This document shows, in pieces, positions 13,113 through 32,613 of a stretch of DNA of 38,352 bases. The notes under the pieces were generated by a model, which searched no databases, had not been told where the DNA came from, and saw only the letters and a program-made list of their open reading frames with translations. This DNA comes from a virus. Made by a program: the position numbers and the translations under genes. The DNA is taken from positions 1 through 38,352 of IMG/VR virus record IMGVR_UViG_3300035663_000039, one strand, 5' to 3'. The first letter of the stretch is position 1; each line of letters begins with the position of its first letter.

Positions 13113-16100
13113 GCACAGGCCAAATTGATATTTCTCAAATCAAGTGGGATGATAGCCCTCAAATAGACTTATCGCAAGTGCAGTGGGATGACACGCCTTC
13201 CCCACAATCTCGCATTGATCAAGCCTTTGATGTGCAAGCGCAAAACCCGCCAACTGAATTATATGGACAAAGCGGTACTATTCGCAGGGCATTAGAGCAA
13301 GGCTTAACAAGCAATCTAAGCGATGAAATGTCTGGCCTGTTATCGGCTGGGGCTAGCGATGCAAGACGATCTGACGCTATGGCGGCGCAAGCATTGCCTA
13401 GTGCTGATCCACGTAAAGCCCTCTATCAAAATCAAGCCGATGACTTTGGTGTGTTGGACGTTGTGAGAGGCGGTTACAGGCTGGCATCTGACGCGCTTGG
13501 TTTTGGTGATGGTCAAGCCTCAAAGCGTTATGATGAACAGGTCGCACAAGAAAGGCTTAAAAACAAATTTGCAGAAGCAAGTAATCCTAAAACTGCCATT
13601 GCTGCAAACATTGCGGGTGGGCTGGTAACAGCTCCAGCGTTATCTAACCCTACAGGCATTGCCAGCGCGGCAAGACAAGGCGCGGCGGTTGGTGGGCTTT
13701 ATGGTTTTGGCGCTGGTGAAGGCTTGAAAGATAGCGCGACACAAGGCGCTATTGGTGGCGCGGTTGGTGGCGTTATCGGGGCAGGGGTTGCCAAAAGCGG
13801 TGATTACCTTGCAAATAGAGCGGCTGAAAGAGCGGCAAGAGGACTATCTGAATCAGATCAAGCAATTATTGCCGCATCTAAGGAAGGCATTGATCTTCCG
13901 CGTTACATGGCAACAGATAGCGGCGCAACGCAGGGGCTAGCATCATCTATTGGCGAATTGGCTTTCCTTGGTGCGCCTATAAAGAACGCTGAAAATAAAT
14001 TTGTTCAACAAGTTGGCGGTCGTGTTGATGATATGGCTTCATCTCTTGGCGCTTCGTCTCCCGATGTTGCGGGTGATAAAACGCTTCAAGCGCTCACTAA
14101 TTTTGTAAAAACACGCGGCGGGGCTGGTGAAAATTATAAACCGCTTGATGAAGTAATTGATCAAACAAAAACAACCGTTTTAAATGCGACGCGATCCGCT
14201 GTTAATCAAATTGCTGAAAAAAACAAACTTGCAATGTTGCCAAGTGAAACAAGCGCAACAAAGATTGTGCGCGATGCGATTAATTCACCTGAGGGGCTAA
14301 CGTTTGAAGGTGTTAAGGCGCTACGCTCAAAAATAGGTGAGCTTCAAAGCAATGCGCTTTTGCAGGACACAAGCAAGGGTGAATTAAAAAGCATTTATGG
14401 CGCTTTAACAAGCGATTTAAGGAATGCAGCTTATAACGCTGGCGGTGAAAAGGGCTTAAAGCTGTTTGAAAAGGCGAACCGTGAATACGGCATTGCATCT
14501 GCAAAATCAAAGGCGCTTGAGAAAATCGTTGGCAAAGACGGATTGAGAAGCGCTGAAGAGGTATTTGGCGCGATTGAACGGCTTGCTCTTAACCCTAAAA
14601 GCAATGCGGGGCTATTAAATACAGTCATGCGTGAATTGCCAAAAGATGTTGCCGACGAAGTGCGTGGAACGCTTATTGCTAAAATAGGACGCAATCTTGA
14701 TGGTGATATTTCACCAACTGGTTTTGTTTCGGCATTTAGCAAAATAGGTGATAGACAGAAAAATGCTATTTTTGGGACTAAAGGCACTGAATACCGCGAT
14801 TCCATTGAAAACATTATTCAAGTTATGAACAGGGCAAGAGCCTTTGAAAAGTTTGGCAATAAATCAGGCACGGGGCGCGTTGTCGTTAACAATCTTGGCA
14901 TAGCTGGCGGTCTTGCGACTGTTGGGAGTTTTATCGGCTTTGCAAAGGCGGCATTGTTTGGTGCTGGCACGTATGGCTTTGCAAAAGTCATTGCTAACCC
15001 TGTTTCGGCACGCAAACTAAATTCAATTTTGAAAGTGGTTGATAGCAAAGCATCCGATGCGGCAAAGGCTAAAATCATACAGCCAATGGTCACAGCAATA
15101 CAAAAAGAGACAGGTGTCGAAATTCCGATAACACAAGCCGCGACAAATCAGGTGGTTCAACCTTCTCAAGTGAGTGGTGTAACGCCTAAATTTGGCAAGC
15201 ATAACGTCACGGCTGCGGATAACACAAAGGTTGAGGTCGAGCCTGTTATTGTTGATGCGTCTGAATTAATACATTCATTTAACCCGCGCTATTCTCAAGA
15301 GTTGCAGCCACGCGATAGAGCAAGAGGGTCATCTGATTTGCAAGTTAATAAAATAATAAAAGAGTTTGATCCTGAGCGCTTAGGCTATTCATCGGAATCT
15401 GATCGTGGTGCGCCTATTATTGGCGGTGACATGATGGTCGAAAGCGGCAATGGCCGCGTTGAAGCGCTTAATCGTATTTATAGCCAAGGCGGTCAAAAAG
15501 CTGAAGCTTATAAGCGCTATTTAACTGAGCAAGGCTTTAATATTGAAGGCATCAAAAACCCAGTTCTTGTGAGAAAAAGAATGGGTGAAATGTCTCAAGA
15601 CAAGCGCGTTAAATTTACGCAAATGTCAAACAAGGGTGCTATTTTAGAACAATCCGCGACTGAAAAAGCTGAACAGGAAGCGGGGATGATCACCAATGAA
15701 ATGATTGATTTAATCCAAGATTCTGGTGATCTACAATCATTAGCTAACGAAAAATTTGTCCGTTCATTTATATCAAAATTACCTACGACAGAACAGGCAA
15801 GCTTCCGTGATAAAGATAACATTTTATCATCTGAGGGCTTATCAAGGATTAACAACGCTGTTCTACAGGCGGCTTATGGCGATTCATCCATTTTGAGGCG
15901 CGTTTCAGAATCCCTTGACGACAACATCAAAGGCATAACAGGCGGTCTACAAATAGCAGCCCCACAATGGCTTAAGCTTAAATCGGCAATAAAAAGAGGC
16001 GATGTAACGGCGGATTTTGACCTTTCTCAGCAAATAACCAAAGCAGCGACGCTTATTTCAGACGCAAGAGATAAAGGCTTGCCGATTGATAAATATATGC

Positions 16101-27926: not shown

Positions 27927-28237
27927 GATGCACCTGCCTTCCGCAGTGCGCCATGAGCATCAGACAACACCCTCTGACGCCCTTCGCTCTGTGTGCCGTC
28001 AATGCGGTCAGATTGGTAACCAAATTCTTCAATCATCTTTGCTAAAGCCTCGCGCATATCGTAAAAGCTGTTACAGGCGAGGGTGATGAATTTTAAATCC
28101 CTTACATCTGACGTAAAACAATCAATAACAATATAGCCACTTTGATTAACTACACGGTGTGAAGACGGATAAGTAATAACCTCCCAAGGCAAAAGGTTGT
28201 GCCAAGGCAACGGCGAGTGCTTGCGTTCATTTGTCAT
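27923..28237 (-). CDS. HSPLPW-type accessory protein (104 aa)
   Basis: ATG 28237 follows AAGGAG at good spacing. The product has MTNERKHSPLPWHN, then SGYIVIDCF and a closing NSFYDMREALAKMIEE helix. Proteins with HSPLPWxV... then AxxIVxAxNAHxDLxxAL are very common in phages of Alphaproteobacteria, with unknown role. The upstream in-frame codon at 28261 is rejected because it lies inside the preceding gene without a ribosome site. Confidence 0.72.
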   Translation of the reverse strand: MTNERKHSPLPWHNLLPWEVITYPSSHRVVNQSGYIVIDCFTSDVRDLKFITLACNSFYDMREALAKMIEEFGYQSDRIDGTQSEGRQRVLSDAHGALRKAGAS

Positions 28238-29523
28238 TGTGCGCTCCTTCTTGCAACCCACACATCACGCAAACATTTTTTAACCATGTATCGCATGGCG
28301 CGGCGGTGCGCGTGTATAGGGGTTAATGGTTTGAGGGGGGATGGTGGCGGTTGGTTTTCTGCGTAACCTTGCCCCCCCTCATCTGGTGATAAATTGGCAA
28401 AGTGTGTATGATTATCAATAGATATATGGCCTTCTTCTTCACCAGAATTTTGTAAATGCCGATTTAGCTCATATTCTTTTCGCGCTAAATACATGGCGCG
28501 GTATTTTTCATCACCCCCACGCAACAAGCATTCGCTGATTAAATAAGCGACACTGCGACGGGATGGATTATAGCCATGAATAAGCGCTTTATCAGCATCA
28601 GTGCATTTACGTTGACGCTCCCCATCAAGCACGGCAAGCCCCATGCGCTTCCACACGGCAGACGGTGATTTATAAGCGAGAATATCGTCTCCAAGTTCAC
28701 CTAAAAGCGCGGCAAAATTTAATTCACCAAAACCCCTAATTGATTTAATAAATCCATAAGCAGGATTTTGCTTTGCAAGTTGTTTAAGGTGCTTTTCGAT
28801 TGATCCGCGCAGCTTTTCAAAGCCTTTCATGCTTTCAATGTAGGGCGCTAATGCCATTTCAAGGATTGCGTTATCTGCCCCGTCTTTAAGCACTGATTTG
28901 AATAATGCCCCTGCTTTATCTTTGTCACCGTCGCAATATCGGCGACAGATTGCTTGAGCCTGTAAAGATAGTGATTTTTCAGATCTATGCCATTGCTGCC
29001 GAACGCGCCATAACTGCACAAGCTGAATAATATAATCGGGGGAGGCGACGCGGTGCTGTGGATCAAGAGCAAAATGGCCTCCCCCATCGATGACATTTGT
29101 GAGATGGTTATCTGGTTCTAGAAGGTCATCGAGTTCTGAATTGTTGGGATGATGCTCACTTACCTTGAGTTCAAGCATATCTTCGGCATCATCCCGTGAC
29201 GGCAAACAACTACTGTTTGCATTTTCTCTTTTGGCCGTCACATCTTTTCGCGTCTTGCGAGCGCGTTTAATGGGCGCTGGTTGCGCATCTAGGCTGGTTT
29301 CATGTATAGGGTTGGCAACCAGCGATAGAGGCTCTTCAACCGTGATTATATGGTTGGCAATGGCCTCTATTTTCTTCAATTTCTTGGGGGGGGATTTGTC
29401 CTTTTGTGATAAGATGTCCCTTCGCCCCCCCCCCGTCTGCACAGCTTCCATGGTTAAAACAAAAGAATTGGCAGACGTATAGTTTAGCGAAACTTCATCG
29501 CAGATTGCATTTATATCAAGCAT
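28234..29523 (-). CDS. IS110-like (Transposase_20) domain protein lacking the RuvC-like part
   Basis: The 429-residue protein has a low-complexity charged N-terminus (1-150), a helical middle, and at about 256-330 an IS110/IS116/IS902 C-terminal domain: FIKSIRGFGELNFAALLGEL, AVWKRMGLAV, then PSRRSVAYLISECLLRG. It ends in HAHRRAMRYMVKKCLRDVWV, also typical of phage relatives. No DEDD nuclease domain is visible upstream, and the usual Ser/Gly after GLxP is replaced by LDGERQRKC, so it probably binds nucleic acid without transposing. No terminal repeats flank it. A G10 tract (coding strand) and a C8 tract lie near its 5' end. Confidence 0.75.
   Translation of the reverse strand: MLDINAICDEVSLNYTSANSFVLTMEAVQTGGGRRDILSQKDKSPPKKLKKIEAIANHIITVEEPLSLVANPIHETSLDAQPAPIKRARKTRKDVTAKRENANSSCLPSRDDAEDMLELKVSEHHPNNSELDDLLEPDNHLTNVIDGGGHFALDPQHRVASPDYIIQLVQLWRVRQQWHRSEKSLSLQAQAICRRYCDGDKDKAGALFKSVLKDGADNAILEMALAPYIESMKGFEKLRGSIEKHLKQLAKQNPAYGFIKSIRGFGELNFAALLGELGDDILAYKSPSAVWKRMGLAVLDGERQRKCTDADKALIHGYNPSRRSVAYLISECLLRGGDEKYRAMYLARKEYELNRHLQNSGEEEGHISIDNHTHFANLSPDEGGQGYAENQPPPSPLKPLTPIHAHRRAMRYMVKKCLRDVWVARRSAQ
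29425..29434 (-). repeat. Ten-base G homopolymer (coding strand) inside the IS110-like gene
   Basis: C10 on the + strand encodes GlyGlyGly at about residues 30-32. Another mononucleotide run (G8 at 29386-29393) lies 32 bases further into the gene. Such tracts change length easily during replication and would shift the frame. They could be phase-variable or an assembly weak point. Confidence 0.8.
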
Positions 29524-31314: not shown

Positions 31315-31409
31315 CACATCACCCCCGTGATAATACCGATTGAGATCATAAAAATAGCCGTGAATTGAAAAGCTGCATTGAAATTATCTGGGTTCAACAT
31401 GTCACTCAT
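31314..31409 (-). CDS. Tiny membrane peptide (31 aa)
   Basis: MSDMLNPDNFNAAFQFTAIF and onward ends in one hydrophobic helix (FTAIFMISIGIITGVM). Starts at 31409 (or 31400 for MLNPDN) and overlaps the end of the first operon gene; its stop overlaps the next start. Small, but coupled on both sides. Confidence 0.52.
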   Translation of the reverse strand: MSDMLNPDNFNAAFQFTAIFMISIGIITGVM

Positions 31410-31770
31410 CCCCCTCGTAGTCGTTTTGATCCCACCCGCATTCCTCTAAAAATTGGCGTATATTTGGTTCAAGATCATCCCACGCGATATCTGAAGAATG
31501 CAAATCAACTAACGCTTGAGCTATTTCACAATCAGGCACAACACAGACATTTGTTTCGTCAATTTCATAAAGCTTGTAAAAATCCTCAATATACGAATTT
31601 AAATAATCGCAATCAGAGACAAATGATTTTACGTCTTTTTTTAAAATCTCTTCTGCATCAATTTCGCATGTGTGAAAAGTTTGAGCCTTACTGCCATCTG
31701 GCAATGTTCTGTCGCTTTTCATCATCAAAACGTAGAGCTTTAAATTTGGCTGCGTTGTAAAATAATTCAT
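31402..31770 (-). CDS. Acidic early protein, first gene of the left early operon (122 aa)
   Basis: The 122-residue protein is very acidic (AEEILKKDVKSFVSDCDYLN, SDIAWDDLEPNIRQF, ending NDYEGDE) with no membrane segment. A strong GGGAGG precedes its ATG, 20 bases downstream of the expected start of the leftward promoter. First-expressed acidic phage proteins often act on the host (DNA mimics, inhibitors), but there is no specific match here. Function unknown. Confidence 0.66.
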   Translation of the reverse strand: MNYFTTQPNLKLYVLMMKSDRTLPDGSKAQTFHTCEIDAEEILKKDVKSFVSDCDYLNSYIEDFYKLYEIDETNVCVVPDCEIAQALVDLHSSDIAWDDLEPNIRQFLEECGWDQNDYEGDE

Positions 31771-31796
31771 TTTAGCCTCCCTTGATCGTGTATATA

Positions 31797-31826
31797 TGTA
31801 TATTGCTAAACTTAGCTACGTGTCAA
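31797..31826 (-). promoter_or_regulatory. Leftward early promoter with internal operator
   Basis: On the complement TTGACA (31821-31826), an 18-base spacer, then TATACA (31797-31802). The spacer contains the palindrome GCTAAGTTTAGC. Transcription would begin near 31790 and enter the 122-aa gene at 31770 after a short leader with GGGAGG. Confidence 0.75.
31805..31816. promoter_or_regulatory. Operator copy 1 (GCTAAACTTAGC)
   Basis: A palindrome of two GCTAA/TTAGC arms around AC, identical at 31836-31847 and 32305-32316. This copy is inside the spacer of the leftward promoter, so a bound protein would block RNA polymerase. Confidence 0.8.
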
Positions 31827-31835
31827 TACAAAAAT

Positions 31836-31847
31836 GCTAAACTTAGC
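31836..31847. promoter_or_regulatory. Operator copy 2 (GCTAAACTTAGC)
   Basis: Identical 12 bases. The centre is 31 bases (about three helical turns) from copy 1, consistent with cooperative binding. It lies 9 bases upstream of the -35 of the putative RNA promoter at 31857. Confidence 0.78.
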
Positions 31848-31856
31848 AAATTTTAT

Positions 31857-31884
31857 TTGACATTCTTTTTTCGTGAGGTATGTT
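31857..31884 (+). promoter_or_regulatory. Candidate promoter of the structured RNA
   Basis: TTGACA (31857-31862), a 16-base spacer, then TATGTT (31879-31884). The predicted start is about 31891, exactly where the self-complementary, non-coding region begins. Confidence 0.55.
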
Positions 31885-31890
31885 TTATGA

Positions 31891-32290
31891 GAGGGCAGGG
31901 CATAGAACGCTGTGTGACGTAGCGTGAAGTGTCTTGCCTTCACCTTATTTGATCTGTGCGGCGTGGATGGACACGCAAGACCTGACAGCGGTAGAGACAC
32001 TTGCCACCATGAAGCGCCGTCCTTACCCAGTGGTGGAGTCTCCAAGGCCGTGATGCGGTGAGGACGTAGCGAGTGTCGAGTCTCGCCACAGATCAAATAA
32101 GGTGCTTAAAACGCACGATAAAATCGTACAGTTGAACGAATAAATCGTTCAACTGAATTGAATACCCTGCCGATGGGTGCTTGTGAGCTAAATCGGATGA
32201 GGATTAGACGGTGAGTGCCTCATGTTGCAAAACCCCGTCAGCTCGTGGTTTGTCCCCTAACTTCTGCAAACGCGACGGGCAACTATTTTT
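31891..32290 (+). ncRNA. Candidate structured non-coding RNA (about 400 nt), class unknown
   Basis: No convincing gene lies here. Helices seen: 31892-31897 with 31935-31940 enclosing an 8-bp hairpin (31907-31925); an 18-bp perfect long-range helix, CACCTTATTTGATCTGTG (31941-31958) with 32087-32104; hairpin 31961-31976; 31994-31998/32038-32042 with 32004-32009/32031-32036; a 10-bp pairing of that hairpin's loop (32018-32027) with 32057-32066, which gives either a pseudoknot or, with 31996-32001/32072-32077, an alternative nested fold; hairpins 32115-32127 and 32129-32155 (11-bp stem). It ends in CCCGTC/GACGGG plus GTTG/CAAC pairing and a T-run (32284-32290). Base composition is visibly GC-richer than the flanks up to 32104. 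Fold by eye only. Confidence 0.6.
32224..32290 (+). terminator. Terminator-like hairpin at the end of the structured RNA
   Basis: GTTG (32224-32227) and CCCGTC (32234-32239) pair with GACGGG (32274-32279) and CAAC (32280-32283), followed by TATTTTT. The loop is long (34 bases) and the left arm has a 6-base bulge, so it is not a canonical terminator. It ends just before the rightward early promoter. Confidence 0.45.
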
Positions 32291-32294
32291 CCTG

Positions 32295-32322
32295 TTGACA
32301 GGTTGCTAAACTTAGCTATATG
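32295..32322 (+). promoter_or_regulatory. Rightward early promoter with internal operator
   Basis: TTGACA (32295-32300), a 16-base spacer, then TATATG (32317-32322). The spacer contains the third GCTAAACTTAGC. Transcription would begin near 32329, almost on the ATG at 32332. Confidence 0.72.
32305..32316. promoter_or_regulatory. Operator copy 3 (GCTAAACTTAGC)
   Basis: The same palindrome as copies 1 and 2, here in the spacer of the rightward promoter. Flanks TT...TA are shared with copy 1. Confidence 0.8.
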
Positions 32323-32331
32323 ATCTTCATC

Positions 32332-32613
32332 ATGACAATATACAAATCACAAGCAATCGAAAAATTAATGAGTGTTGTCGAGGTTTATACTTCGGCGGTA
32401 GGGCGTGCAGAATCAACGGTTTCCCTTGATGTGTTTGGCACGGGGGATACCTTAAAGAGGCTTAGGCTTGGCAAGGACATGCTAACCGAGCGCATTGAAA
32501 GCGCAATGCTTTGGTTTTATGAGCATTGGCCTGATAATGCGTGTTGGCCTGATAATGTGCCAATTCCTAAAAAAGATGAAATAAACAGCAACCCAATGGA
32601 ATTAATCAAATGA
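32332..32613 (+). CDS. Hypothetical protein (93 aa), first gene of right early arm
   Basis: ATG 32332 begins MTIYKSQAIEKLMSVVEVYT. An earlier in-frame ATG at 32320 lies within the promoter -10 and would not be in the message. There is no Shine-Dalgarno sequence; the transcript start predicted from the promoter is about 3 bases before the ATG, so the message may be leaderless. The protein is helical with a Trp-rich end (AMLWFYEHWPDNACWP). It overlaps the next gene by 4 bases. Function unknown. Confidence 0.6.
   Translation: MTIYKSQAIEKLMSVVEVYTSAVGRAESTVSLDVFGTGDTLKRLRLGKDMLTERIESAMLWFYEHWPDNACWPDNVPIPKKDEINSNPMELIK

What the first reader, a model, noticed from the sequence alone, without database searches (positions are those of the whole stretch)
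31857..32290. About 400-nt structured non-coding RNA candidate between the early promoters
The gap has no convincing gene but has its own TTGACA-N16-TATGTT promoter. It then has a series of perfect helices: an 18-bp long-range pair (31941-31958 with 32087-32104), an 8-bp hairpin (31907-31925) and an 11-bp hairpin (32129-32155). Its end is terminator-like with a T-run (32284-32290). The part inside the 18-bp helix is visibly GC-richer than the flanks. I checked it against tmRNA, 6S, RNase P and bridge or omega RNA features from memory and saw no match. Placed among the regulatory promoters, it could be a phage regulatory RNA, an RNA that acts on host processes, or the DNA-level structure of an origin.
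Basis: partly seen in the sequence, partly recalled or inferred. Interest (0 to 1): 0.9.

Follow-up and report, generated by a model that had tools for sequence, protein, structure and literature searches.

The report
Phage RNA with a pseudoknotted 3' end
Between the early promoters of an uncultured phage (probably of alphaproteobacteria) lies a roughly 390-base gene for a folded, non-coding RNA; its last third belongs to a known but unexplained phage RNA family, for which about 100 relatives give a fuller, well supported structure, while its first two thirds have no known relatives.

Summary
A promoter (31857-31884) is followed at once by a highly structured region, and no gene was found there.

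It is a composite of two parts. (1) Window 32164-32283 is a true member of Rfam family RF03044 (Proteo-phage-1, 59.8 bits, gathering score 42), which has no known function. With 97 non-redundant relatives I extended its structure: P1, P2, a loop-to-tail pseudoknot and a 3' hairpin P4 with two bulged Gs that the Rfam model lacks. Covariation is overwhelming: the variable pseudoknot pair is kept in 96 of 97 against 44 by permutation. The window copy obeys every helix and scores 105.8 bits with the extended model (which includes it).

(2) Window 31890-32163 has three strong structures (z about -6) but no Rfam match and no relatives in any collection searched. Hairpin 1 folds far better on the + strand (-27.7 against -11.9 kcal/mol), which agrees with the promoter.

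Relatives lie just after terminase, portal or capsid genes, before Mu transposase, or at promoters; some are followed by terminators. The window copy lies where related phages carry CI, beside a Cro-position gene, with three identical operator-like repeats.

Best reading: a stand-alone phage RNA gene. What the RNA does is inferred, not shown.

The parts
31805..31816 (.). operator-like repeat 1 (GCTAAACTTAGC), in the spacer of the leftward promoter
   Evidence: exact 12-mer found only three times in the window
31797..31826 (-). leftward promoter PL-like, TTGACA-N18-TATACA, upstream of ORF 31402-31770 (-)
   Evidence: read directly from the sequence; not in the scan table
31836..31847 (.). operator-like repeat 2, about 49 nt upstream of the predicted start points of both PL and the RNA promoter
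   Evidence: distance inferred from promoter positions
31857..31884 (+). promoter of the RNA, TTGACA-N16-TATGTT; predicted +1 about 31890-31891
   Evidence: +1 inferred from spacing
31891..31941 (+). 5' unit, hairpin 1: 13-bp lower stem (31891-31903/31929-31941) and 8-bp upper stem (31907-31914/31918-31925)
   Evidence: z -6.5; -27.7 kcal/mol on + strand, -11.9 on - strand
31941..32104 (+). 5' unit, large domain closed by the perfect 18-bp helix 31941-31958/32087-32104; GC-rich interior
32115..32155 (+). two linker hairpins: 5-bp hairpin at about 32115-32127 and perfect 11-bp hairpin 32129-32155
32164..32243 (+). Rfam RF03044 Proteo-phage-1 match (P1 32170-32174/32192-32196; P2 32197-32202/32218-32223)
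   Evidence: 59.8 bits, gathering score 42, E 1.6e-8; pair counts
32207..32239 (+). pseudoknot PK: GACGG 32207-32211 with CCGTC 32235-32239
   Evidence: variable pair canonical in 96 of 97 non-redundant relatives, permutation mean 43.9; 29 of 29 in A4
32241..32280 (+). hairpin P4: 32241-32246 with 32275-32280, two bulged Gs (32272, 32274), upper stem 32248-32252/32267-32271; outside the Rfam model
32286..32290 (+). T-run after P4; weak or non-canonical 3' end
   Evidence: not called as a terminator
32295..32324 (+). rightward promoter PR-like, TTGACA-N18-TATGAT, with operator-like repeat 3 (32305-32316) in its spacer
   Evidence: 11 of 12 matches
32332..32613 (+). Cro-position gene (phrog_7669), apparently leaderless from PR
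   Evidence: next to CI genes in several alphaproteobacterial phages

Best explanation
Window about 31890-32285 (+) is a stand-alone gene for a phage non-coding RNA. Shown: it has its own promoter-like site; its 3' 120 nt are a Proteo-phage-1 RNA with P1, P2, a pseudoknot and P4; its 5' 270 nt form a separate, strongly folded unit starting within a nucleotide or two of the predicted transcription start. Inferred: the promoter is controlled by the phage switch, because an identical operator-like repeat lies just upstream and inside both divergent early promoters; the transcript is used as an RNA and acts in trans, its invariant pseudoknot loops and bulged Gs being the binding surface for a conserved host partner such as the ribosome, RNA polymerase or an RNase; the 5' unit protects the 5' end or adds a lineage-specific activity. 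Steps not shown: transcription, the 3' end, the partner and the effect.
For: Rfam RF03044 hit over gathering score. Anchored covariation over 97 non-redundant relatives without selecting for complementarity: pseudoknot pair 96/97 (permutation 44), first P2 outer pair 96/97 (40), all six P4 pairs above permutation. RNAalifold recovers P1, PK and P4 on its own, 18 of 25 pairs with compensatory change; 93.7% of cells paired against 74% shuffled and 30-45% for slid structures. Extended model R1 gives the window 105.8 bits and also finds alpha-type and Mu-type variants left out of the model, about 30-85 bits. The RNA module is portable: after TerL (13), portal (17) or capsid (7) genes, before Mu transposase (4), directly behind promoter-like sequences, in tandem in Robbsia and four times in a Salinisphaera genome, some followed at once by terminators. 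Such varied neighbours fit an autonomous RNA better than a regulator of one gene. Hairpin 1 is strand-specific in the promoter's direction.
Against: No transcript data. The 3' end is not a canonical terminator, so the RNA could be a leader reading into the PR operon. About a quarter of relatives have a Shine-Dalgarno and a start codon right after P4 (24 of 92), which would also fit a cis element. The 5' unit has no relatives, so its structure has no covariation support.
Confidence: 0.5

Rival explanations
1. Cis-acting element in long phage transcripts: processive antitermination or attenuation, working like put RNA of HK022 or the EAR element, modifying RNA polymerase or a downstream terminator.
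For: In the window it lies downstream of one early promoter and upstream of the rightward operon; in some relatives it is the first element after a promoter-like sequence (L003, L040, L086), lies mid late operon, or is followed by an intrinsic terminator (7 of 92 against 1.9 expected by shuffling).
Against: Some relatives appear to end against the 3' end of a convergent gene (read, no formal gene calls). Mostly one copy per phage record rather than one per operon (the second, weak, divergent hit in G006 lacks the core). put RNA has two hairpins and no such pseudoknot (from memory).
Confidence: 0.2
2. mRNA processing or stabilising element: a pseudoknot placed between cistrons or at transcript ends that sets an RNase cut or blocks decay. 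In the window it would cap the 3' end of the promoter-proximal transcript.
For: Position 36-60 nt after stop codons of structural genes and directly before the next Shine-Dalgarno in 24 of 92.
Against: Invariant loop nucleotides are more than a simple decay block needs; occurrence behind a dedicated promoter without a gene, as in the window.
Confidence: 0.15
3. Self-cleaving ribozyme of a new class. The topology (hairpin with a pseudoknot in its loop, A-rich linker, pseudoknot 3' strand, then a hairpin with a conserved internal loop) resembles pistol as recalled.
For: Compact pseudoknot with invariant unpaired residues and a conserved asymmetric internal loop in P4; phage late-operon sites recall phage hammerheads (from memory).
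Against: No Rfam ribozyme family matches at E up to 10; the topology likeness is a recalled lead; no conserved cleavage site identified.
Confidence: 0.07
4. The 31941-32104 segment is a small mobile insertion (MITE-like) with perfect 18-bp terminal inverted repeats and a 3-bp CTT repeat on each side, so part of the composite RNA is an accident of insertion.
For: Perfect 18-bp inverted repeat and higher GC than the flanks; CTT on both sides read.
Against: No second copy of the 17-mer arm in viral contigs; nothing similar in phages or plasmids; a 3-bp repeat is weak evidence.
Confidence: 0.1

Closest known systems
Proteo-phage-1 RNA (Rfam RF03044)
   Same: window 32164-32243 matches the whole 82-position model at 59.8 bits; P1 and P2 as in the model
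   Different: relatives show a pseudoknot, and a further hairpin P4 outside the Rfam positions; many relatives score below the Rfam cut-off or are missed yet are found by the extended model; the window copy is joined to a private 270-nt 5' unit in the immunity region
put RNA of phage HK022 / EAR element (RNA antiterminators)
   Same: structured RNA early in phage or long operons that could act on RNA polymerase in cis
   Different: no pseudoknot of this type recalled; not tested by sequence here beyond Rfam, which gave no such match
Pistol self-cleaving ribozyme
   Same: order of helices as recalled: hairpin with pseudoknot in loop, A-rich linker, second hairpin with internal loop
   Different: no match in the Rfam search at E up to 10; catalytic residues not tested
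Immunity RNAs of P4 and P1/P7 (CI RNA, c4)
   Same: structured RNA in a phage immunity region
   Different: no antisense pairing to the early operon leader identified; no sequence relation tested

Membership tests
Proteo-phage-1 RNA (RF03044) | score over the Rfam gathering threshold | tested here: met
   59.8 bits against 42
Proteo-phage-1 RNA (RF03044) | P1 and P2 helices with compensatory changes | tested here: met
   P1 90% and P2 86% of cells paired, with changes on both sides in 5 and 3 pairs
Proteo-phage-1 RNA (RF03044) | phage or prophage setting | tested here: met
   window has terminase, portal and major head protein; relatives adjoin TerL, portal, capsid and Mu transposase genes
Proteo-phage-1 RNA (RF03044) | made as an RNA in cells | not testable with these tools
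   needs RNA-seq
RNA antiterminator (put / EAR type) | suppresses downstream terminators in cis | not testable with these tools
   needs a reporter assay
RNA antiterminator (put type) | a copy in each early operon | tested here: not met
   single copy in the window and in nearly all phage records with a match; the second weak hit in G006 lacks the core
Pistol ribozyme | match to the Rfam model | tested here: not met
   no match at E up to 10 in 31770-32340
Pistol ribozyme | self-cleavage | not testable with these tools
   needs in vitro transcription
MITE-like insertion (for 31941-32104) | further copies elsewhere | tested here: not met
   no other exact arm in viral contigs, no hit in plasmids

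The most novel reading that the evidence does not exclude
In this phage a structured RNA occupies the place where related alphaproteobacterial phages carry the CI repressor. The extended Proteo-phage-1 pseudoknot, joined to a private 5' domain and controlled by the same operators as PL and PR, would be an RNA effector of the early switch (or a new catalytic RNA class) rather than a passive element.
Probability: 0.08. Interest if true: 0.85.

Novelty: new variant of a known kind. Interest (0 to 1): 0.5.

Why it matters
Proteo-phage-1 has no known function, to my knowledge; the one held-library search for its name found no paper. This work turns an 82-nt orphan motif into a roughly 120-nt, three-part pseudoknotted RNA with defined invariant residues, a covariance model that recovers members the Rfam model misses, and a catalogue of genomic sites. 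That makes function testable: the mutants to make (pseudoknot, bulged Gs) and the comparison to run (early-promoter copies against late-operon copies) are now specified. If the RNA acts on a host machine, it would be a phage RNA effector overlooked in prophages of proteobacteria.

Tried and rejected
Relatives of the 5' unit: blastn of the region against phages and plasmids, exact arm 17-mer, interior 16-mer, the internally repeated GACGTAGCG..AGTGTC motif and the operator plus promoter pattern in viral contigs; local blastn with word 7 against 397 loci gave real matches only for the Proteo-phage-1 part. The upstream 300 nt of the relatives tested is not comparably folded (window z -8.3, next best -2.9), so the 5' unit is not a general companion.

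Isolated phages: blastn with family sequences found no clear member among 50,697 records (one search gave only weak matches at E 0.7 or more), but blastn is weak for 50-140 nt.

Two-copy (nutL/nutR-like) idea: the second weak hit in G006 lacks the conserved core.

Terminator enrichment after P4 is seen but in a minority (7 of 92 against 1.9).

tmRNA and tRNA: none.

IS110 bridge RNA: the IS110-like protein at 28234-29523 has only C-terminal-half PHROG matches and no Pfam hit, and lies 2.3 kb away on the other strand; not pursued.

Terminase relatives (Sulfitobacter, Rhizobium and Paracoccus phages) do not carry the RNA core by motif search; the Paracoccus phage has only a 15-bit match to model R1, E 0.13.

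The source paper of the Rfam family is not in the library. Searches of 149 and 249 host genomes give 1-3% carriers.

Full report
Observation. The promoter scan gives TTGACA-N16-TATGTT at 31857-31884 and TTGACA-N18-TATGAT at 32295-32324. The 18-bp and 11-bp inverted repeats are exact. Folding shows a 5' hairpin (31891-31941) with a 13-bp lower stem and the reported 8-bp upper stem, then the 18-bp helix enclosing a GC-rich domain, then two linker hairpins. Hairpin 1, the unit 31890-32105 and the linker hairpins are each far more stable than 200 dinucleotide shuffles (z -6.2 to -6.5), although the interior of the 18-bp helix alone is not (z -0.8). Hairpin 1 folds at -27.7 kcal/mol on the + strand and -11.9 on the - strand, because it uses G-U pairs; that points to an RNA read in the promoter's direction. 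Its first paired base lies within a nucleotide or two of the predicted start.

Known part. Rfam RF03044 (Proteo-phage-1) matches 32164-32243 with 59.8 bits, gathering score 42. The other two thirds match nothing in Rfam above chance. The paper that described the family is not in the library and no held paper names it, so its published structure could not be compared; I compared only with the Rfam model.

Extending the family. A pattern from the match found 92 contigs in IMG/VR and 118 in GTDB genomes (about 30 genuine by the pseudoknot rule, the rest mostly chance). Members chosen by sequence anchors only, without using complementarity, number 97 non-redundant. In these the variable base of the loop motif GGATYAG-N-CGG pairs with the base after CCG in 96 cases against 44 expected by permutation. 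The first outer P2 pair holds in 96 of 97 (40 expected), and all six P4 pairs exceed permutation. An alignment of 29 members including the window gives P1, the pseudoknot helix and P4 by RNAalifold, with 18 of 25 pairs showing compensatory changes. The named structure has 93.7% of cells paired against 74.1% in shuffles, and 157 cells with double changes against 47.5. P4 carries two bulged Gs on its 3' side at fixed places. In the window P4 is GCTCGT/ACGGGC with one G-U pair. A covariance model from this alignment scores the window 105.8 bits (the window is one of its 29 sequences) and also recovers alpha-type and Mu-type members left out of the model, at about 30-85 bits. Robbsia holds a tandem pair, one copy of which has a further compensated pseudoknot change (TCAG with CTGA).

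Where it sits. The gene just upstream on the same strand is a large terminase in 13, a portal in 17 and a capsid gene in 7 of 66 cases; downstream genes include Mu transposase (4) and head-tail connectors (10) of 60. In L003, L040 and L086 a promoter-like sequence lies directly before P1 (read). Shine-Dalgarno plus start follow P4 in 24 of 92; terminators follow in 7 of 92, with 1.9 expected, and in further Salinisphaera copies. Some alpha members appear to end against a convergent gene (read). About 1-3% of sampled proteobacterial genomes carry it. I saw no clear member among isolated phages by blastn, which is a weak test for so short an element.

The window's setting. The first gene after PR (32332) belongs to phrog_7669. 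Its relatives stand next to a divergent CI or transcriptional regulator gene in Pelagibaca, Thiobacimonas, Aurantimonas and Agrobacterium phages, that is, in the Cro position. In the window the CI position is taken by the RNA gene; I did not test every protein of the window for a repressor elsewhere. The 12-mer GCTAAACTTAGC occurs exactly three times in 38 kb: in the PL spacer, between PL and the RNA promoter, and in the PR spacer. The regulation of the RNA by the phage switch is an inference from this.

The 5' unit. All searches for relatives failed, and upstream regions of other members are not comparably folded. It is therefore private to this lineage as far as the collections show. An origin by insertion of a small element with 18-bp ends cannot be excluded, but no second copy was found.

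Mechanism. The diverse genomic placements with one conserved RNA fit best with a stand-alone RNA that acts in trans through its invariant pseudoknot; this is inference. A cis role in transcription or mRNA processing is the main rival, and catalysis is a minor one. The T-run after P4 is not a convincing terminator, so read-through into the PR operon is possible.

Verdict. A structured RNA gene by sequence evidence; the 3' third is a new member of a known orphan family, whose structure is extended here; the 5' two thirds are unmatched. Interest is moderate, higher if the RNA proves to be an effector.

Noticed in passing
window 28234-29523 (-): Protein with PHROG 'transposase' matches confined to its C-terminal two thirds (IS110-like), no Pfam hit and no N-terminal nuclease domain evident; its only phage relative found is in Rhizobium phage RHph_X2_25.
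   Followed up: partly
window 32295-32334: PR-like promoter places the ATG of the Cro-position gene at about +1, so this mRNA is probably leaderless, with an operator-like repeat in the promoter spacer.
   Followed up: no
L401 2061-2286 (Robbsia): Two Proteo-phage-1 RNAs back to back; one has an extra compensated pseudoknot change.
   Followed up: partly
L399, L400, L402 (Salinisphaera orenii): Four copies of the RNA in one genome, several followed at once by intrinsic terminators.
   Followed up: partly
L073, L082, L090: The P1 position is taken by a terminator-like hairpin (GCTGGGGCTTCGGCCCCAGCCTTTTT) immediately before the core.
   Followed up: no
L239 3835-3961 (Singulisphaera acidiphila): A candidate member in a planctomycete genome, 29.5 bits with the extended model; nearly all other genuine genome hits are in Proteobacteria.
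   Followed up: no
window about 31917-31931 and 32064-32078: Repeated motif GACGTAGCG..AGTGTC in hairpin 1 and in the large domain; both copies could pair with GACACTTG near 31993, a possible alternative fold.
   Followed up: no
window 13641-13840: The most unusually stable 200-nt stretch of the scan (z -5.2) lies inside the 1087-aa ORF; not explained.
   Followed up: no
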